DNA of 64,000 nt from Cucumis sativus (Eukaryota; Streptophyta; Magnoliopsida; Cucurbitales; Cucurbitaceae). The stretch lies in assembly GCF_000004075.3 (NCBI RefSeq), contig NC_026660.2, forward strand, positions 26,043,498 through 26,107,497. Direction: 5' to 3'. Position numbers and translations under genes: made by a program. Below the pieces are notes generated by a model. The model made no database searches, had not been told where the DNA came from, and saw nothing but the letters and a program-made list of their open reading frames with translations. Positions 37,001-54,783 of this stretch are shown here, piece after piece (the stretch's first letter is position 1; every line of letters starts with the position of its first letter).

Positions 37001-39458
37001 TTGTATTTCATTTTTTTTAAACAAGGAGTTAGATCTTTGCCCCTATACTTGGGTGCCTGCCTGCCCCAAACCTGAGCCCGAAAAACATCAAGGAAGTGTT
37101 TGGGGCAAGGAGTGGAGTTATGAATTTTGGAGAGTGGCACAGTCGTGGAGCCCACAGATTAAGGAATTAATAAAGTGTTTATAGTCATGGGACCCACCAA
37201 CTCCTTTGACTAAACAAGGAGTAGAGTTCCCAACTCCAACTCCTTAGGCAAACCTTGGGCAAATCTCCCCGCAAGGGTTTGTGGCATTAAGCTCACCCCT
37301 CACCGAAAGAATTGAACTTAGGACCTCTAAGCCGGTATGACCAAAAAAACCCAAGTCCTGGCCAATGGGGCAGCCCCTTGGATATTATAATTTCTCAATT
37401 TGTAGTACGAGAATTACCTTTATCAACTTTCCATTTGCAGTCATATGCTTTAATTTTGTTGAAAGAAGTTTTTTAAGGTTTGACGGGGGCCAGTAATGCT
37501 CCTACACAGAAAATGAAAACTTCAGATTGTATAGAACCATGTTGTCAACAAAAAACAATCATGTAGAGGCATCAAGGTAGAAGAAGGAACTGAGAATTGC
37601 ATAAAGAACAAGGAACTGAGAATTGCATAAAGAACAAGGAACTGAGAATTGCATAAAGAACAAGGAACTGAGAATTGCATAAAGAACAAGGAACTGAGAA
37701 TTGCATAAAGAACAAGGAACTGAGAATTGCATAAAGAATAAGGAACTGAGAATTGTAAAGCTAGTGTCATAAAATTTTCTGTATTCATCTATACTTCTTT
37801 CAATATGTGAGGATTTACTATAATCTAAACCTTCAAATGGCCAGAGTGCACAATTCGATAGAGATCTAAATTATGAATGAGAAAAACCCAGAAACTGAAA
37901 GATATATAACTAAGCACCCAAATCTTCGAGATGATAAAATTGCATGAAATAAGTGAATTTGATAAACAAGAAAACATTTTTAGATTTTCCTTGGTTTTTG
38001 TTAGATGTCTTATCACTCTTTTTGTTTCTTTCCTCCTCTTTTAATGGAAAGTTATTTCCTACTTCCTACTCGCACAAGAGATTACCATGTAATGTTATAA
38101 ACAGAAAAAGAAATCACATTTGGCAGACTTTTGACTGATAGGCATTCCTTCCACAGAAAGAAAAAAATACAGCAGCTCATAACAATGACAACACTATGAT
38201 TTTGCTAATTATCCATTCTATTCATACAAAATAATTAAAGACGCCAGGAGGAAAGATGTTTACTGCAAATATAAAATTGTCAAACATTCGAATTCAACCG
38301 TGTTATGCATTAGCACCTCTATGTACATAGCAATTGCAGCTCGGTCAGAACCCCTTGGCTCCTTTAGGTTGTTAATTGCCTCTGATATAAGTTTGTCCAA
38401 TCTACATCATGCAAAAGAGGTCTTATAAATCAATCCAAAATCAGGAAAGGAAGGATGAAGCACCTGCAGTTTCCAATGAAAGACTAATTCTAGAGCATGA
38501 TGTTTAAAACCATGTCTAATGGATGTAAACCAATTTGGTAATTATATTTTCTCATTCTGAACGGAGGTAAAGAACCACTTAGATCAATAATGTGTCATTT
38601 CATAGTACAAGATAACCGACATAGAGGCAAAAGGAAATAGTGTAGAGCCAGAAAAGGCCTTTTGTTTCTCCAAAATAATATGAAAAAATAGAAAATAAAT
38701 AGAGTGTCACTGAATGCAATAAGGTCAAGGGCTTTGGTAATGCATTAAAGCCAATATTTACTTTACCAGAAAAATTAGCTTGCTGTGCACTATGGTATTT
38801 GATATTTTAAATGAAACAATGTGAACCCAAATAACAATTGGTTATGCAACAATCACAACAAATATCTGATTATTTCACCATGGAACAAAAAAAGATTCAC
38901 ATGATTAGCTGCCATAAGACCTTGCTAGTGGCTCTTTCGGACCATTGGAGCGACTTGTTCCATTTGAAATCGCAAGTGGCTTAGCGTCAACGATCTCCTC
39001 ATTTGGAAGCACAGTGCTTACAGGCACAAGATTATCATGATGTTTTATGGCCATAGAATTCTTTTTAAGTGCGAGCTTAGCCTTTTGCCTAGACCCCCAT
39101 ATTGCAGTAACATTTATATTTCTCCACTTATCCTGTTCAGAGCCAAAATTACATTGAAAAATCATTAAATGTTTCGGTAAACCAAGCACTGTATTTCCAA
39201 GTAGAATATTGAAAGAAAACTCAACATGAGATGTTTGGTGAATTTCTACATTCTGTGACTTAATACTGTGGTGAGTGAACGAGAAGTATGGGGACAGGGG
39301 GGAGGCACCTTGAGATCCACATTTGAGCGTTGATGCAAAATTGAGCTGAATTCAGGATCTGTGAGTATTGTGCGCCATTTTCCCGCTCCATGCTTGATCA
39401 CTCCTGCCTTAAGGGCAGCTTCTTCTTCAGCTGTCCATTTTTGCTTAGGGGCACCCAT
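34068..39458 (-). CDS. TRB2: Telomere repeat-binding factor (TRB; Myb/SANT plus linker-histone domain)
   Basis: A nuclear protein that binds telomeric and telo-box DNA and, in Arabidopsis, recruits chromatin regulators. Five coding exons: 39309-39458, 38921-39132, 38317-38401, 37418-37501 and 34068-34451, giving 304 residues (Arabidopsis TRBs are about 300). The N-terminal Myb begins [20 protein letters not shown] and reaches the telobox signature VDLKDKWRN (47-55). The central H1/H5-like domain (about 122-185) has [14 protein letters not shown] and [13 protein letters not shown] long Ala/Glu coiled coil follows at about 225-290 ([20 protein letters not shown]). The ATG is the first base after a splice acceptor. 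A strong donor at 39964 (aag|gtaaga) implies a 506-base leader intron. The final exon reads to a stop at 34070-34068, but a donor-like caag|gtaatt just before it leaves the last residues uncertain. Confidence 0.93.
34737..35010 (-). mobile_element. Fossil fragment of a Ty3/gypsy integrase C-terminus
   Basis: On the minus strand, translated sequence includes [16 protein letters not shown], which resembles the GPY/F-region lead-in of plant gypsy integrases (KRRDLEFxVGDxVFLKxxP). Only a short piece is recognisable, with no flanking LTRs or other domains, so it is an old broken remnant within the TRB intron. Family assignment rests on this one motif. Confidence 0.35.
36051..36267 (+). mobile_element. 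Solo-LTR-like fossil, 217 bp
   Basis: Begins TGTTAGAAA and ends TTTCTAACA, so it has TG...CA ends with a 9-base inverted match. Inside are a TATA-like ggttatatacag near 36143 and GT/T-rich sequence toward the right end, as in short copia-type LTRs. The flanks (gcttct / gtctct) do not give a clean target duplication. No internal retroelement sequence adjoins it with confidence. Confidence 0.4.
36990..37376 (-). repeat. SINE-like sequence interrupted by a MITE-like insertion
   Basis: On the minus strand, 37376 to about 37256 reads gggctgccccattggccagg, then a tRNA-like B-box stretch ggtcctaagttcaattc. Sequence of similar style resumes left of the MITE (gggctcaggtttggggcagg, through 36990). This pattern is that of a tRNA-derived SINE split by a later insertion at 37096-37255. 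No poly-A end or target duplication was made out. Confidence 0.35.
37096..37255. mobile_element. MITE-like element with about 22-bp terminal inverted repeats
   Basis: Left end gtttggggcaaggagtggag, right end in reverse complement gtttgcctaaggagttggag: the two match over most of about 22 bases. The body is about 160 bases with no coding capacity. The superfamily is unclear because a target duplication could not be fixed. It lies in the TRB intron 160 bases from exon 4. Confidence 0.5.
37584..37755. repeat. 26-bp minisatellite, about 6.6 copies
   Basis: The unit aaggaactgagaattgcata plus aagaac repeats with exact 26-base spacing from 37584, 37610, 37636, 37662, 37688, 37714 and 37740. The first five full copies are identical as read. 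The sixth has one change (aagaat for aagaac) and the seventh is cut short. It sits in the TRB intron between exons 3 and 4, 83 bases upstream of exon 4 on the gene strand. Confidence 0.95.
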
Positions 39459-45181: not shown

Positions 45182-48100
45182 TCAAGCAAAAGCTCTATCG
45201 ACGCTACCAATCCTGTTCCTATCTGGCAACAGCTTCTTCATGTAGTACTTTGAATTTCTGGATAGATTTATCTTACTTCTCCTCTTTTCAGGTATTGATT
45301 CAAATGAACATTCTGAGAAACCACGCCTCACAAACCTGTTAAACAACTGGGGCATCATTTCCTTCCATCGACAAAATCAACTAAATTATCAATGAAAACC
45401 TATAACCGAACATGTTGACATGTTCTTATCTTCTCACATTGCCATTCGAGACATAAAATTTTGCTCTCAAAAGCTAACGAGAACCATCTAAGAATTCAGA
45501 TTGATATTACTTAAAAACTGTTGCAGGAAGAGATACAATAAATTAAGAAAGATTGCAATCGAACCAGTCCGCCGTTCGGGTTGTCAACAGAAAGAGCCTA
45601 TCCAGTCCAAGTGAGGCAGCCTTCTTTTCCATGTAATCTGCAGATCAGGAAGCAAAGTTACGTATAAGTTAATGGAAAGAGTGAGCACCCAGGTCACCTG
45701 AATAGACTAGTAAAAAGGTGAAACCTCCCAAGTGAGAGGAGGGTATCTTTGGTATTGGGAATGGTAGAGAGATTTTGGGATGGAAAAGAACCCTCTCAAA
45801 CAGGCTAAGGCTGTATGGTAATATCTTTCACTTTGTTCTCTACTGATCATAAATAGTATTTTCCAAGATACCTATCGAAAGCTCAAGGTTTTAAACCATT
45901 TACTCTTCGGGACAGTTTAGAAAACATGCACATTAATATTTTATCTTACACAGAGACCTAGCATGAGTATCTGTTGGCTTTGATCTACGGTACATTACAA
46001 AATGCAGCACTTAAAATGTGAAAAGTGAAAATTCGTTTTGAAAGGTTCAAATGAAAATCCCAAAGATGCCATCATAAGAGCTATAACCAATATCCCGACT
46101 ATTTAGCTGTTTTGAAGTTTGAAAAAAGATTTTTTTGAATACTTAAAAAGTCAATCCAAATGACTCATTATCATAACAGCCAATTGATGTCACCATACAC
46201 TGGCATTGTAAACCATGACCTAAATGAGTTGAACAGAATTCGCTCCTTCTGTTGAGTATGTGATAAAGCAACAATTCATTATCATACCAAGCAATTTGTC
46301 GCCTTGTCCTTGTCCTCGGCACTCGGCAGAAACTGCAATGGCAGCAATCTCTCCACATCTCTCTTCAAAGAAGGGGAAGAGAGCTGCACATGCAATGATT
46401 TGACCTTCTCTCTCAACAACAACAAACGAGTCCAATGATTCAAGTAGCTGCAATAACAAAACAGGATCCAGACATTCTAATCAATCGATCTCAAAACTCC
46501 ATTTAAGCTCCATAGGAAAACAAAACATCACTACCCACAAACTGGGAATAACTTATTGGACAGTGGTTCTTGCAAAACACTGGAAAGGGTGGAAGTTGAA
46601 ATACAAACCTCTTCATCACTTCTACGAACTAAGGTACCAGCCATTTCTAAAGGTAGTATAATTTGTCTAATTCCACGAAGATCAGACACTCTGGCCATTC
46701 GTGTTCCCTCGTAAAGATCACTGGAAACAGAAAGTTCATCGTGCATATCAGTTAATGGATAAAAAATAGCCCATTGAATGCTTTTAATCTTCTTTAAAAT
46801 GAAGTTTTTAGGTCCTATTTGATAACTATTTAGTTTTTTATAATTGAGCATATGAACATTAAACGCTACGTCTACCTATGAGTTTCTTTTATGCAATCTC
46901 TATTTTATAAGTGTTTTCAGAAACCAAGAAAAAATTGGAGAACTGAAAAAAAGTGAACTTTAGAATTTAGCTAAGCGTTAACATGTTTCTTTTATGAAAG
47001 ATAAATAGGAATACAATTATAGAGAAAGGGTGTGAAAACAAGCACATTTCTTAGAAATAAAAAGGCAAAAGGTTAACAGTATTTACAAACGAATTCCTTC
47101 ATAGATATAATTCCCGGGCATTACTAGTTACTACTTGTAATTCTCCGAAATGATTTTAACAGTTTAGTCACCAACAATACATTCATAAACAATATACGGA
47201 TGAATACAATGAAACTTCTTAAAAAAAAAAACCAAAAACAATATCACTAAAATAGCTTCCAACACATAATTATAACGTGAGCTAGTTGACCTCAAAAGGA
47301 ACAGAACTTTTCACTGAGGGGTAAAAAACCCAAATAATAGTACTACGTGAAACTTATTGTCAAGTATATCCATTGTTTGAGATGAAGATATAACAGAAGA
47401 GACTTGCCTGGCTACCATAGTGCCCATTCCATCTCTCTTAAACAATTCAAGCAATAAAACTCCTCCAATAGTGCCATCTAGCAAATGCACTCTTTGAACA
47501 CCACCCTAAAAGTATGATAGCAAACTCAATAAAGCCCAATTCAGAACAGTCATCAACATGAATGAAAAATAATTCATTCCACAACGATCTAGATAATTCA
47601 GGTAATTTTCCAACCATCGAACGCCTATTGAGCCACATACCAAGGAACTAATGTCAAAAATGGACAAAGAAAACATGAACCAATTTCCAAATATAAAAGC
47701 CTTGCATAATGGTAACCGAGGAATTATCTATTGCGTCAGGAAATTTAGAGGGAGAAACTAGAGGATAACCACAAAATCTTAAATAGTAAGAACATATTTT
47801 AAATTACAATGAACTATTTGGAGGGAAATTGCCCCCTACTTTTTTGCATTCTTTTTCACTCTGCTGCTGATGATAACTTAAAAACGGAAATTTTCGATTT
47901 GAAATAGTTAATAACTTAATTACGATAAATAACTAAGCAACAGGCTGATCAGAGATCAAGAACATCAGAAGGAATAAGCAAGCCCCAATTCAATGAAACA
48001 CATGATTAGGCCTTTTTCTTGTTCCTGAAATATGCCTGTGTGAGAGAGAAGTATGAAGAAAGTTCATGTGAAGTATAAATTTAAGACAGTTAGAAAACCA

Positions 48101-50162
48101 AGAAAAGAACAAAAAGACACTGTGTAGATGACTTGGTGAATGGTAGTATATGAAAATTGTACCCGGCAAACAAAAGCTGCAGCAGCCAATTCTGAGAGGT
48201 AACCATTCATATGGCTATTCCGCTCACCTCCAATGGGAAACCCCTGTTCCGAAGACCAAAGCCCGGTTCCATGACCAAAACCAACTCCGTTTTGGAATAC
48301 TGGCATATGATGAGGGCCAAAACCCACCCCATTCTGGAATGGAGTATGAGCTTCCAAAGAAGCCTTTCCATTCTGCAGATGAATACTCCCATTTGAATCA
48401 TTATACCGAGTGAAATCTTCCTTACCAACAACTTTCACATAATTTGCAGCAATCTCACATTGCTTAGCCCTTTCACGAATTAACATGTCTGCTTCTTGAA
48501 GAGTTAGAAAACTAATATGGCGTCCAGCTTCATCTAGAATGGGACCATCAATGATGCATATAAGCTTGTCAGCTCCAATAGCCAAGGCACAAGCTGTTGC
48601 AACCTCATATGTACTGAAATCCACAAGACAAGAACATCAGTAATGGCTCTTCCTCCAAGTGATCTCAACAAAATATCCACCCTTTTAATTTAAGCACTAC
48701 ATTTTGTATGAACCAAAAACATATTTGGACTATCCCTTTCTCTTCAGTAAATTACTTCCCGGACATACAAGGGAAACAACTACACAAGCTGAGAAATAAT
48801 GAAATGCTCGTGATAGAGAGACTAAGAAATCAAACGCCCACAAAAAGAATCATAATTATAAAGGAAGAAACTATAAACAAGATTTAACAACAAATAACTA
48901 CAGGCATCATTGCATACTTGCAATTCAGAACTTCGCCAGAACTAGAATAACCAAGGTTGCTCAATATAACTATACAACCACCATCAAGCCTCTCACGCAT
49001 GCGAGCTACGTCTACTTTCTTAACTTCACCCGTTGCCCCATAATCAACACCATCAACAACTCCCCTTCTCTGCAAAAGGAGAGTAACCACTCATTCTACA
49101 AATTTACAATCAAATAATATCCCAAATCCACGATATATCATAGGCGTTTCAAGGAAAATACCATATTAACAAACTAAAAAGATTTCTACCTTAGCAGCAA
49201 GAAAGTTGCCACTAACAACGCTTACACCAACTTCATGCCAACGTCTGCTGTCTCCATGTCTACGGATATTGCAGATAGAAGGTCCGGGTGAAAGCTTTGC
49301 CTCAATCATCACCCGGATACCTCCAGCCGCTTCCATTGCAGCTGCTAGAGATTGGCTATCAGTAACCCTGTATTGACCAACAAAATTCGGCTTGCTTCCT
49401 GTAACGGGTACAGACATTTAAAATTAAAAATCATATCAAGGTCAACATGAGAATGAAAGAGAACTGAAAAAATAACAAATTCTTTTTTAAGTATACTAAT
49501 AGAATAATAGTAAAGTGGCCCAAGTCCTTGGTTTCAACAATATTGCATATGATAAACAAAAGACATCAAAGAACAAACCTCTCTCCGCCAAAAGTTTGTC
49601 AATTAAAACGTGGGTCCCTGGAACGAGAATGAATCTGATTCCAAGATGATGAAGAAAAGCAATGTCCTGGACGTATAAATAGCTTCAACAGGATAAATTG
49701 AAACCAACACCAAAACTAAAGAAATACATCATAAAACGTAGGTCCCTGATCAATATAAACACGAAAAAAGTCATATTAAAGAGATATGACAAAACCTGCC
49801 TTTAGAATAAGATCTAAGTAAGAGCTAGAAACAATTTCCCCAGAAATCATCACAACGAAAGTGCCTCCTCTATGTGCCCATAAGTAAGGCCAAGCCTCCC
49901 TAAACCAACGCACAAACTGCTTATCCTCCACAGAATTGTAATCCTCTTCCTCTTCCTCCACGTCCCCATTTCCGTAGTTGAATAGATTGAACCTTCTCGA
50001 GCTTTCCCCTACTTTCTTCAATCCCTTGTCCCGCAATTCTAACTTATTGAACTTAAACATTGCCTTCCCATTTTGGAAACTACGGCTATAAGGGACATTT
50101 TTAGAAGGAAATCCTCGGCTTGTCTGTAAATAAAGCTGAGAGCTTGAAAGGGAGGCAGACAT
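45182..50162 (-). CDS. NAGS: N-acetylglutamate synthase (amino-acid N-acetyltransferase), plastid; form using proximal exon 1
   Basis: First enzyme of ornithine and arginine synthesis: acetyl-CoA plus glutamate gives N-acetylglutamate, in the plastid. Ten exons: 49800-50162, 49579-49666, 49190-49398, 48918-49069, 48163-48613, 47408-47505, 46609-46720, 46288-46447, 45565-45637 and 45182-45335, joining to 619 residues (Arabidopsis NAGS1 is about 610). Residues 1 to about 80 are a transit peptide and variable acidic stretch. The kinase-like domain runs to about 320, with [56 protein letters not shown] and [20 protein letters not shown]. The C-terminal GNAT domain has [20 protein letters not shown] and the acetyl-CoA loop [11 protein letters not shown], then [11 protein letters not shown]. 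Introns 1 (AAG|gcaggt) and 6 (CAG|gcaagt) need GC donors to keep frame. Confidence 0.95.
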
Positions 50163-50985
50163 GGCAGACGAAGCGAGGCAAGAAAGTGACAAAATAGAAT
50201 TTTGGAGGTTTCAAACTTCCAACTTATAAAAGCCATTGCGGAGCCGCCGACCACGGAGAAAAGGGTTGTAGAATCTTGGGCCTTTTGGGCCACGAAGCTT
50301 TAAATGGGCTGAACCCAATTCTTTTGAGATGGTGGCTATCGCTATCGGATTTGTTTCGAGTCATGGAAATAGAAAGGAAGACGCGACTAAACGAAACTGT
50401 GGTGATGAGACCGAAAGCTTAGTTCAACACTTGGCCTTTGTCATTCACTGTTTTTTTCTAATACTTATCATAAAGCCCCTCAAGCAACGAAGAGCCGATG
50501 AGATACGCAAGAATATATCAAGCCAAGATAGAGCGACAAAACGGAAGCCTGTCTAAATCCTACACTACTCAACTTGTAAAACAACTTCTGATTTGGCCCT
50601 TCAAAGCACTTCCACCTCAAAATGCTTCCAAAGTCCAAAAATGTTCTACTTTTCATCAAAAGATAAAAACATGGGGATTGGGTTTGGTCCCAAACTCCAA
50701 AGTTTTTTTACTTTTTAAAATACTAATGTGTGACGTAAAGATATTTGAGTTTAAAATAATAAAACACTAATGTAGACATTAATTTTATGTTCTGTTTTTT
50801 CCTTTTTCGTGATGATCTAAACAAGGGGTCCCACTCGATAATTTCTCTCTCTGTCTGCCTCTTGCCTTTGGTTAAGTTCCCATTTAACTCAAACAAAACT
50901 AAAAGTAGAGTTCATAATTATCCGCCACCGATAGAAAGAATTAAAATGAAGCAATTTTTATTACAGAGACGAGAGAAAGAGAGAC

Positions 50986-51393
50986 CTTAAGCAAGGCATG
51001 GAGGCGAGGACTGGCTACAATTTCGGCGGATATAACGACGACAAAAGTACGGCCTATATGAGAAAAAATATAGGGATAAGCTTCTCTGAATTCTTCAATA
51101 AATCTCCTGTCTTCTTCAGTAACTTTTGTATAATACGCATCATTTTTAGTCTCAATTTCCGGCCCCTCAGCGGTTGTTTTGACCTCCTCCCGGTTGCAGA
51201 CTTTCCCCGCCGACAATCCCATATTCAATTTTCTTTTCCCACTCTCACAGCACATTGGACCTTTGATCGTCGTCCATCGCCGCAGATTCTTTCTGTACCC
51301 ACGTCCCACACCCACCGACTCAAAATCAAAGCAAGTAATTTCACGGTAACTACTCTTCGGAAAAACCCAAGTCCTTGTTGTGGGAGTAGCCAT
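50986..51393 (-). CDS. NAGS: Second, distal candidate first exon of NAGS
   Basis: An open exon of 136 codons from ATG 51393 to a donor AAG|gtctct at 50986. It encodes a Ser/Arg-rich leader, then EEDRRFIEEFREAYPYIFSH, a RTFVVVISAEIVAS strand and ALLK. Its last 35 residues match those of the proximal exon 1 at about 60% by eye. It ends in phase 0, as the proximal exon does, so it could splice straight to exon 2 (GACATTGCTTTT) and give a 634-residue protein. It has no following copy of exons 2-10. So it is either a true alternative first exon with its own promoter or the remnant of a tandem gene copy that has stayed open. The lack of any break over 408 bases favours use. Confidence 0.7.
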
Positions 51394-52072
51394 AACCACC
51401 AGTTTAATGGAAGTGAAACAGAATCCAGAAGGAAAAGAAAAAGGTTTTCTAAAGAGTGTATTGTGAAACAGAAACAGAGAAAGGCAGGAAGAAGAGAGAG
51501 GAAGAAGCTGAATGGCGAACGCGGCGAAACGGTGGGGTGGGAAGAAAAGAAGTGATAAAAGAGTAAAAAAATGTTTAAAGGAATTGTGGAGTGGCGATTA
51601 AATAGAAGAATGTATGGAATCGGTTGGTGAGGTTCAATTTTGAACTCATTCATTAATATTTATAAAATAATTGAGCAATGGCAATTGAGAAGCTGATGAC
51701 CTCTGCATTCATGGACGTAAATTCTTTTTTTATTCAAAAAAAGGAAGAAAAAAAATAGTCTGAACACATACATTTCAATTATTTAGAGAAAGACAAAAGA
51801 AATGAGTCATTGATATTATTCGAATTTTTTCTTTCGTTTATTCTTATTCCTAATTCGACTTTTTAATTGAACCTTTTTTTGTAATAAGAAATTGAGAAGA
51901 AATGAGAGTGAGGCGGGCGGGGGTTTCCATTGCACGTGACTTCCACTCCCTGAATATTCATTTGGGTTTACCTCAGCAGATTAGAAAGGGCACGTGGAGG
52001 AATTTAGAATGTCGTGGGCAATTTAGTAAATTCCTTGTAATTTAATATTTTTTTATACTTATCCGAAAAATA

Positions 52073-52112: not shown

Positions 52113-54783
52113 TGTGAGGAGATGGCAAAGGGAAGTTACTTTATGGGAATGAGTTGAACTGATAAAGCAGAGAGAACAATGACCAACGGAATTAAGGAAA
52201 AGAACCACATAATATTATCATTGTTGTTATTGTTAATCTCATAATTACTGAGATGGAATTTGTATGATTTTGTTATCAAATTAAATAACCTGTTCGGATT
52301 TTTTTTTTACATAGTGTTCGAATAAGTTAAAGGAAGAATAGTGTTAAACATGTTCTTTTCTTTTTTTGGAGAACAAACAATTTTAAACCTCCCGACTGTC
52401 TCTTGTGTCTAATCAATACGTTAGAGATATTGCATGAGTACCAGGTGTTCGATCCACCGATGCTTAAAGAAAAGGTGGGAAATGCATTATTATTTTCGAA
52501 ATTGAGGAGAGCCCAATGGGCCATTTGAGAAAATAAAAATTAAAGCCCAATTGTCATTATATTGTAGATTGGGCTTGTAAACGGTATCACTTTGTGGTAG
52601 GGCATTTGCCTTCCGCGATGGCCCAAATTATGCAAAAGGCAGTAGGAAAAAGGGAAAAACTTAACAACTATATGCCCTTTGTAATTTACAAATATAACAG
52701 CCATGTTAAAACAATAATAATAAAGTATACAACATCTTGAAAAACTACAAATCTATCGAACCATGTTACAAATATTGATATATTATTTAATAGACTTTAG
52801 TATCTTTGCACTTTCTTTAAATATATTGCAATGTATTTAATTATTATTCATAAAATTGTTGTCCTTCGTAATTATTCAAAAAATAAATTAGAAAAAGCTA
52901 TCCATTATAGTTATTAAAAAATAAATTATAAACTGTTTTTCTAGTACAACTTACGTGTACAAGAGATTTTGAACCTCCCACCAAAAACCTGATAATCTAA
53001 ATTACTAGTGATAAAATAAAAGTTGATCTTATGTACATGGCTTTACCGGTAGAGAAGTGAAGATGACAAATTCAATCCTTAATCTTATTATTTGATTATA
53101 TTTATAATAACTAGTTATGTTATTTGATAACACATATTAAAAAATCAACACCATTATGTTAGAATTTTATCTTTTATATATGATGCCATATTGTAAAAAC
53201 TCATATACATGGTTGGGGATTGCCTAGGACAAGGGCTAAAGTTAGTGAGCAAGTTCAAGTCTAAGAAATTAAAATTGGAAGGGGCTACATGGGGAGAGAG
53301 TACCTGCATCTCAAAAGGGAAAACCCTCCAATTTTGTGACAGCGAGTCGAACAAAAAGGAAGTGTCTTATCTAAGTAAATAACCGAGTTGAATATATTAA
53401 GTCTAGCACTCTGCACCTTGAGAGTCATCATCTTTCTAACATTGTCCACGTAATAAGTAATAACTACATGTGAGTGTCAAATGAAAGAGATTCCAAAATA
53501 GTTCCACTGGTAAGATAGTGTGTTATAATGGCATTTTCTGTTGTGTTATTTAGTTTTGGTTTATTTAATAGGCAAAAACACATGGACCCAACTTATTAAT
53601 TATTTGAAGTATTTCAAGTTTCAACTTATTAATTGTCATTGCAGTAGATATTGAAATCTTAATATGAAACCTTCCCTCTCCCTATTTCTCTTAACTATTC
53701 CGAAACGTATACCTAAAAGAAGCAAGTAAAATCCAAACAACTTCCCAACCTTATTTTCTATACTTAATTGGTTCAACTATATCATTTTTTTTGTATTGAT
53801 CTAGATACTATATCATTCGTCAGTTAATTAAACATAAGTATAGTGTGAGTAACTCTCATGCAAGTCAACTCAAACGACAGAACGAGATCTGAAAAGTGAG
53901 TTGATAGATAATTCAAGAAACACGCATAACAATAATACCGCACATACCAAATTTTCAATGTACAACATGCACTCACAAATAGAATTGTTTGTTCAATTTA
54001 TTGTCCTTATATTTGTTAGAAAATATATAATTAAATTCATCTTCACTTGTTAATTAAGTTATTGAGTCAATCAATGATTTAATATGGTATTATAGCAAGT
54101 TAGTTTAGAAAAGTCTAATGTTGAAGTTGGTGCAATATTACTTTGTATGTAATCAATATTCTACTCACTTGTTTGAATGTTATGTGTATAGGAGCGGAGG
54201 GTATATGAACCATTTAACTGTTTTCAAACCGATAAACTTAAAAGCTTTCACACGACACACAAGGGAATTAATATGGACCCAAAAATAAAATGAGACGGCA
54301 AAATAATGCTTTAAATGAAGACAAAATCAAATACCCAATGATGTAGAAATATAGAGAGAAAGTGTTCATTTATTTTTTGACACGTAAAGTGAATTGGTCA
54401 TTTTCCTAAAGAAATTAAGATGGTTGAACATGAAACCACCCAAACCCCACACGAAAAACAATACACCCTACTTCCAAAAAATGGATTAATTTTGCCAAAG
54501 ATAATGTAATATGTGTAGTTCTTAATTTAAAGAGCCAAAGGAATCCAAGAAAATCAAAACATGTCCCATACGTTCAAACAAATATTTGAAACCACAAAAA
54601 GGTGACAATGGTACTTTTATTTATTTATTGAGAAAAAAGGTGGAACAACGAATATCCATTGTCCATGGTGCTCTTCCATTCATAACCACAAACCAAAGTT
54701 TTGTTCCTTTACATTATATTTACATAATGTCAGTAACCTTTTTCAATTCAATTGAAGCTTATCCAAAGGATTATGAAATTAAG

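What the first reader, a model, noticed from the sequence alone, without database searches (positions are those of the whole stretch)
49800..51393. Two in-phase candidate first coding exons of N-acetylglutamate synthase
The distal exon (50986-51393) and proximal exon (49800-50162) each start with ATG, carry a different leader, end with a homologous 35-residue segment (FREAxPY...TFVV.IS.EIV.S...LK) and stop in phase 0, so either can join exon 2. Exons 2-10 occur once. This would give two NAGS proteins (634 and 619 aa) differing in targeting peptide and in the first strand of the kinase-like domain, from two promoters 0.8-1.2 kb apart. In Arabidopsis I recall two separate NAGS genes instead. I know of no description of this arrangement, but cannot search.
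Basis: partly seen in the sequence, partly recalled or inferred. Interest (0 to 1): 0.8.

Follow-up and report, generated by a model that had tools for sequence, protein, structure and literature searches.

The report
Arginine-pathway gene with two first exons
A plant gene for the first enzyme of arginine synthesis carries two related but long-separated starting exons, so it can probably make two enzyme forms that differ in the leader and in the part of the enzyme that helps sense arginine; this is predicted from sequence and not yet seen in RNA.

Summary
On the minus strand one plant N-acetylglutamate synthase (NAGS) gene has nine common exons (498 aa) and two coding first exons, distal 51393-50986 and proximal 50162-49800. 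Both end in phase 0 at the same homologous point, giving 634- and 619-aa products. In the window exons 2-10 occur once, exon 1 twice. The two share 23 of 42 residues with synonymous sites saturated (pS 0.87, pN 0.31): an old duplication under purifying selection. Each has its own TATA-like box and different promoter motifs. Both products pass NAGS family cut-offs. I read this as a type I alternative-first-exon gene making two NAGS forms from two promoters, possibly with different arginine response. No RNA data, plant relatives or targeting predictor were available; a different compartment for the distal form is open. Ten searches of open-access papers showed no description, but their listings were partly capped and most listed papers were not opened.

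The parts
50986..51393 (-). distal alternative first coding exon, 136 aa, phase-0 GT donor AAG|GTCTCT
49800..50162 (-). proximal alternative first coding exon, 121 aa, phase-0 GC donor AAAG|GCAGGT
50986..51111 (-). distal copy of the homologous 42-codon segment (N-terminal helix and first strand of the kinase-like domain)
49800..49925 (-). proximal copy of the homologous 42-codon segment
49579..49666 (-). common exon 2 (acceptor shared by both first exons)
49190..49398 (-). common exon 3
48918..49069 (-). common exon 4
48163..48613 (-). common exon 5
47408..47505 (-). common exon 6, also with a GC donor (CAG|GCAAGT)
46609..46720 (-). common exon 7
46288..46447 (-). common exon 8
45565..45637 (-). 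common exon 9
45182..45335 (-). common exon 10 with stop codon
51659..51664 (-). TATAAA of the putative distal promoter, about 270 nt before the distal ATG; a pyrimidine-rich stretch follows (about 51580-51440)
51933..51938 (.). G-box CACGTG upstream of distal exon
51991..51996 (.). second G-box CACGTG upstream of distal exon
50277..50310 (.). three site II (TGGGCY) elements of the putative proximal promoter
50223..50229 (-). TTATAAG, TATA-like box of the putative proximal promoter, about 67 nt before the proximal ATG

Best explanation
One plant NAGS gene has two mutually exclusive coding first exons of common origin (type I alternative first exons). Each is transcribed from its own promoter and spliced to the same exon 2 acceptor; transcripts from the distal promoter are expected to skip the proximal exon, which as a first exon needs no acceptor of its own. 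Both products are NAGS enzymes sharing all catalytic sequence and the loop half of the arginine site, but each brings its own leader and its own N-terminal helix and first strand. The most likely use is to put the committing step of arginine synthesis under two transcriptional programmes, with a possible second effect on arginine feedback through the helix. Shown: exon anatomy, homology, selection, family membership, the arginine-site tyrosine in both forms. Inferred: promoters, splicing, expression, plastid location, regulatory consequence.
For: Anatomy and in-phase joins; one copy of exons 2-10 and two of exon 1 in the window; 23 of 42 residues identical with 30 of 42 third positions changed, pS 0.867 against pN 0.305, pN>=pS in 0 of 2000 bootstraps, neutral simulation mean 11.4 and maximum 20 identical residues in 5000; the distal leader (94 codons before the 42 compared) scores as coding, 0.41, against a maximum of -0.09 in 136 noncoding pieces; both products exceed the cut-offs of TIGR01890 and NF003641; TATA-like boxes and different motif sets before the two exons; arginine-site Tyr17 of N. 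gonorrhoeae NAGS (PMC3236213, passages) is the Y of the PY motif, present in both exons, while the residues matching its K201 and E270 (PMC4490483, passages) lie in common exons and are kept.
Against: No RNA evidence at all. The distal donor is the weakest of the gene's ten on the recalled matrix. The distal exon departs from bacterial NAGS at more conserved positions than the proximal one (keeps 11 of 15 against 14 of 15), including Gly, found in 25 of 25 bacterial enzymes, changed to Ala. The next frame of the distal leader also scores positive (0.263 against 0.41). Promoter motifs are short and are not proof; at least one site II triple within 120 nt arises in 83 of 2000 random placements. 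No plant relative could be found with the collections held.
Confidence: 0.77

Rival explanations
1. Two promoters only: the two N-termini are functionally equivalent plastid leaders plus interchangeable helices, and the arrangement serves expression alone (distal G-box type, proximal site II type).
For: Different promoter motif sets; the arginine tyrosine and 11 and 14 of 15 conserved positions are kept in the distal and proximal exon.
Against: The distal form changes an otherwise invariant Gly and a near-invariant Arg (25 of 25 and 23 of 25 bacterial enzymes), which is more than neutral interchange would suggest, though the proximal form departs at one conserved position too.
Confidence: 0.4
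2. The two forms go to different compartments (for example plastid for the proximal; mitochondrion, both organelles or cytosol for the distal).
For: Proximal leader: no acidic residue before position 42, 9 Ser in the first 30. Distal leader: acidic residue at 18, 6 Arg in the first 50, amphipathic Arg-rich windows within 25-48. Rice argininosuccinate lyase has a pair of forms in different compartments (PMC4520006, passage).
Against: Composition only; no targeting predictor was available. The proximal leader also has amphipathic windows (within 41-62), and Ser+Thr content of the first 50 residues is the same, 0.20, in both. The distal leader begins MAT and is Thr-rich, compatible with plastids. 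The review holds synthesis in chloroplasts to be apparently the only operating arginine route in plants (PMC4520006).
Confidence: 0.25
3. The distal exon is a relic of a tandem duplicate of NAGS that lost its other exons and is no longer used.
For: Weak donor; more departures at conserved positions.
Against: Open frame and protein-level constraint despite saturated synonymous sites; 4175 of 5000 neutral simulations had a stop in these 42 codons alone; coding-like leader; phase and boundary kept.
Confidence: 0.08
4. The proximal exon is the unused copy and the gene is read only from the distal exon.
For: Its donor is GC rather than GT.
Against: The GC site is otherwise near consensus and a second intron of the same gene also has a GC donor; the proximal exon is the better match to bacterial NAGS.
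Confidence: 0.04
5. Assembly error or chance resemblance.
For: None found.
Against: The copies are only 56% identical in DNA over the 42 codons, so they are not one stretch assembled twice; the protein score is far above shuffles.
Confidence: 0.01

Closest known systems
Type I alternative first exons of plants (Chen et al. 2007, PMC2174465; abstract, outline and passages seen)
   Same: Mutually exclusive first exons, shared downstream exons, starts more than 500 bp apart (the criterion used there for putative alternative promoters).
   Different: Type I clusters that both change the N-terminus and have a putative alternative promoter are few there (3 rice, 7 Arabidopsis of 137 and 99 type I); 5 and 1 overlap a functional domain. 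Here the two exons are homologous to each other and both code for part of the domain. 'duplicat' and 'tandem' do not occur in that text.
Rice argininosuccinate lyase OsASL1.1 / OsASL1.2 (as told in PMC4520006; passage seen)
   Same: Arginine-pathway gene with two transcripts giving different N-termini.
   Different: There the forms differ slightly at the N-terminus and in compartment, and only one complemented yeast; here both predicted forms have a complete NAGS domain set.
Arabidopsis NAGS1 (At2g22910) and NAGS2 (At4g37670); tomato SlNAGS1 (PMC4520006; passage seen)
   Same: Same enzyme family; Arabidopsis too is reported to have two predicted NAGS proteins.
   Different: In Arabidopsis two separate genes; tomato is reported as single copy. 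No alternative first exon is mentioned in the passages seen.
NCP of Arabidopsis, light-regulated alternative promoter (PMC12412214; abstract and outline seen)
   Same: Two starts of one gene give N-terminally different proteins.
   Different: There the downstream start gives a shorter, cytoplasmic form; here each start has its own leader and its own piece of the fold.

Membership tests
Bacteria-like (classical) NAGS | Amino-acid-kinase-like domain followed by GNAT acetyltransferase domain | tested here: met
   Pfam AA_kinase and Acetyltransf_1 above gathering scores in both forms
Bacteria-like (classical) NAGS | Score above the curated equivalog cut-off of NAGS models | tested here: met
   TIGR01890 400.5 and 410.2 bits (cut-off 202.85), NF003641 435 and 442.3 (cut-off 344), distal and proximal form
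Bacteria-like (classical) NAGS | Arginine-site residues matching Tyr17, Lys201 and Glu270 of the Neisseria enzyme | tested here: met
   Tyr in both first exons; Lys287 and Glu441 (proximal numbering) in common exons (residue roles). The loop motif reads E-L-F-K-x-x-G-x-G-T, with Lys where the review gives Thr/Ser.
Type I alternative first exons | Two first exons that can each join the same downstream exon in frame | tested here: met
   both phase 0 to the acceptor at 49666
Type I alternative first exons | Transcripts of both kinds exist and are mutually exclusive | not testable with these tools
   no RNA data; no genome held for the window
Alternative promoters | Separate transcription starts | tested here: inconclusive
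   start codons 1.2 kb apart, own TATA-like boxes and distinct motif sets, but no cap data
Differential targeting by alternative leaders | The two leaders direct different compartments | tested here: inconclusive
   composition and helical moment only

The most novel reading that the evidence does not exclude
An ancient duplication of a first exon lets promoter choice swap the arginine-sensing N-terminal helix of NAGS, so the plant sets the feedback of arginine synthesis by transcription start choice, and forms hexamers mixed from two helix types; the distal form, with Gly to Ala and Arg to Ile beyond the helix, would have a changed arginine response.
Probability: 0.22. Interest if true: 0.72.

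Novelty: new member of a known kind. Interest (0 to 1): 0.5.

Why it matters
Control of plant arginine synthesis at NAGS is poorly known: the 2015 review seen here says that only the tomato enzyme had been characterised (PMC4520006, passage). A gene in which each promoter supplies its own arginine-site helix makes a direct test possible: express two forms that differ only there and compare arginine inhibition. If the two exon types are as old as the saturated divergence suggests, they should be found, kept or sorted, across many plants, and species with one exon type may have lost the other.

Tried and rejected
Plant relatives: the collections offered are of bacteria, archaea, viruses, phages and plasmids. 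The full proximal form against genome contigs and viral contigs found no relative; each first exon alone against viral contigs found none. So conservation in other plants is untested, not absent.

Chance homology and assembly duplication were rejected. A second NAGS body in this window was rejected. DNA repeats linking the two promoter regions were sought; only short matches (18-37 nt, 70-89% alike or complementary) appeared. No Rfam family reached its gathering score in the window. An antisense ORF over the distal exon (50998-51555, +) was considered; the reverse-strand frames of the distal leader score 0.129, 0.123 and -0.088 against 0.41 for the coding frame, and the other two forward frames 0.263 and -0.074.

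I recalled, in thought only, parts of plant NAGS sequences from memory; nothing in this report rests on them.

The coding-score training set is the common NAGS exons and four other window ORFs picked by me. The 25 bacterial NAGS are the over-cut-off matches (5 of 57 genomes, 20 of 100, drawn from larger groups); one gene was read as L001 instead of its duplicate L007; some rows are near-identical. The neutral simulation puts all changes on one branch.

Full report
What is there. On the minus strand a complete plant NAGS gene runs from 51393 to 45182. Nine common exons (49666-49579, 49398-49190, 49069-48918, 48613-48163, 47505-47408, 46720-46609, 46447-46288, 45637-45565, 45335-45182) code for 498 residues, with AG acceptors throughout and GT donors except for exon 6, which has a GC donor, CAG|GCAAGT. 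Before them lie two coding first exons: distal 51393-50986 (136 codons) and proximal 50162-49800 (121 codons). Both end after Leu-Lys in phase 0 and join Asp-Ile-Ala of exon 2, giving 634 and 619 aa. The proximal donor is AAAG|GCAGGT: a GC donor, since the GT four bases on is in phase 1. The distal donor is AAG|GTCTCT, weakest of the ten on an approximate recalled matrix, with 10% of all GT sites of the window's minus strand scoring as high. That the window is from a plant is my inference from its genes; the species is not known and no genome is held.

Not chance and not an artefact. The two first exons align over their last 58 and 55 residues with score 126 (2000 shuffles: mean 26, maximum 51), and no other place in the six-frame window scores above 39 with the proximal segment. 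tblastn of both products finds the common exons once and the exon-1 segment twice in the window. Over 42 codons the two are 56% identical in DNA and 55% (23 of 42) in protein; differences at codon positions 1, 2 and 3 are 15, 10 and 30 of 42; pS 0.867 (saturated), pN 0.305; pN>=pS in 0 of 2000 bootstraps; neutral simulations with the same number of changes keep 11.4 residues on average, 20 at most in 5000, and 4175 of 5000 contain a stop. So the duplication is old and, I infer, both copies were held by protein-level selection for most of that time. The pairwise test cannot say on which branch selection is stronger today. The 94 distal leader codons before this segment also score as coding (0.41; 136 noncoding pieces: mean -0.53, maximum -0.09), with the next frame at 0.263.

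What the exons encode. Both products pass the curated NAGS cut-offs: distal and proximal score 400.5 and 410.2 with TIGR01890 (cut-off 202.85), 435 and 442.3 with NF003641 (cut-off 344). The best solved relative of both is Neisseria gonorrhoeae NAGS (2r8v and others). The swapped segment corresponds to that enzyme's N-terminal helix and first strand (alignment; that these are helix and strand is taken from the papers and recall). The PY tyrosine of both exons aligns with Tyr17 of that enzyme (numbering checked from its start codon), which forms part of the arginine-binding site (PMC3236213, passages seen). The review PMC4490483 (passages seen) places the arginine site by the C-terminal part of this helix and a loop at the end of the kinase-like domain, with Lys201 and Glu270 as key residues, and says that arginine binding moves the helix and reshapes the hexamer. 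The matching Lys287 and Glu441 (proximal numbering) lie in common exons. So each first exon supplies the helix half of the site and the common exons supply the other half.

How the two differ. Against 25 bacterial NAGS (the over-cut-off matches), 15 columns of the exon-1 segment are at least 70% conserved; the proximal exon keeps 14 and the distal 11. The distal one has Ile for Arg (23 of 25 bacteria have Arg) and Ala for Gly (25 of 25), and departs at two milder places; the proximal departs at one. The distal exon therefore looks the more derived. Whether that changes arginine response is not shown.

Promoters. Upstream of the distal exon lie TATAAA at 51664, a pyrimidine-rich leader, and two G-boxes (two of six in 64 kb); upstream of the proximal exon lie TTATAAG at 50229 and three site II elements within 34 nt (three of 29 in 64 kb). 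Names and usual roles of these motifs are recalled. At least one triple of site II within 120 nt occurs in 83 of 2000 random placements, so it is suggestive only. There is no cap or RNA evidence.

Targeting. The proximal leader has no acidic residue before 42 and 9 Ser in the first 30, as plastid transit peptides have (recalled rule). The distal leader has an acidic residue at 18, is Thr- and Arg-rich, and is ambiguous; both leaders have amphipathic windows and the same Ser+Thr share of the first 50 residues. A difference in destination is open.

What is known. Ten paper searches over the open-access library listed no paper whose title or abstract start describes alternative first exons in a plant NAGS gene. 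Limits: one search listed 15 of 292 papers, most listed papers were not opened, subscription journals are mostly missing, and the original tomato NAGS paper was not among the six hits. The one joint hit is a cancer study (listing only). Databases of gene models were not available, and an automatic annotation may well list both forms. Type I alternative first exons are a known class in plants (PMC2174465; abstract, outline, passages); those changing the N-terminus with a putative own promoter were 3 in rice and 7 in Arabidopsis. In the arginine pathway, rice argininosuccinate lyase has two N-terminal forms (PMC4520006, passage).

Verdict. A genuine, old, type I alternative-first-exon pair in a plant NAGS gene, as far as sequence can show; whether it has been described elsewhere I could check only in part. 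Two promoters and one shared body is the likely mechanism; the functional difference (expression only, compartment, or arginine tuning) is open.

Noticed in passing
52510-52625: Five site II (TGGGCY) elements within about 116 nt, 0.85-0.96 kb upstream of the distal TATA box; besides the proximal promoter this is the only other place in 64 kb with three or more within 120 nt. Possibly a further upstream start of this gene or a promoter of something else; the plus-strand reading frames of 75 or more codons listed in 52-58 kb are short, 99 and 77 codons.
   Followed up: partly
47402-47410: A second GC donor in the same gene (exon 6, CAG|GCAAGT, full match to the recalled GC-donor consensus).
   Followed up: no
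51803-51809: TGACTCA (GCN4-like) element about 140 nt upstream of the distal TATA box; 14 hits over both strands in the window, each site being counted twice.
   Followed up: no
about 41.2-44.3 kb (+): A gene that I recognise (recalled, not searched) as the NDUFS4 subunit of mitochondrial complex I, convergent with NAGS.
   Followed up: no
37525-37870 (-): Short tandemly repeated reading frame ([26 protein letters not shown] repeat), probably a DNA minisatellite.
   Followed up: no
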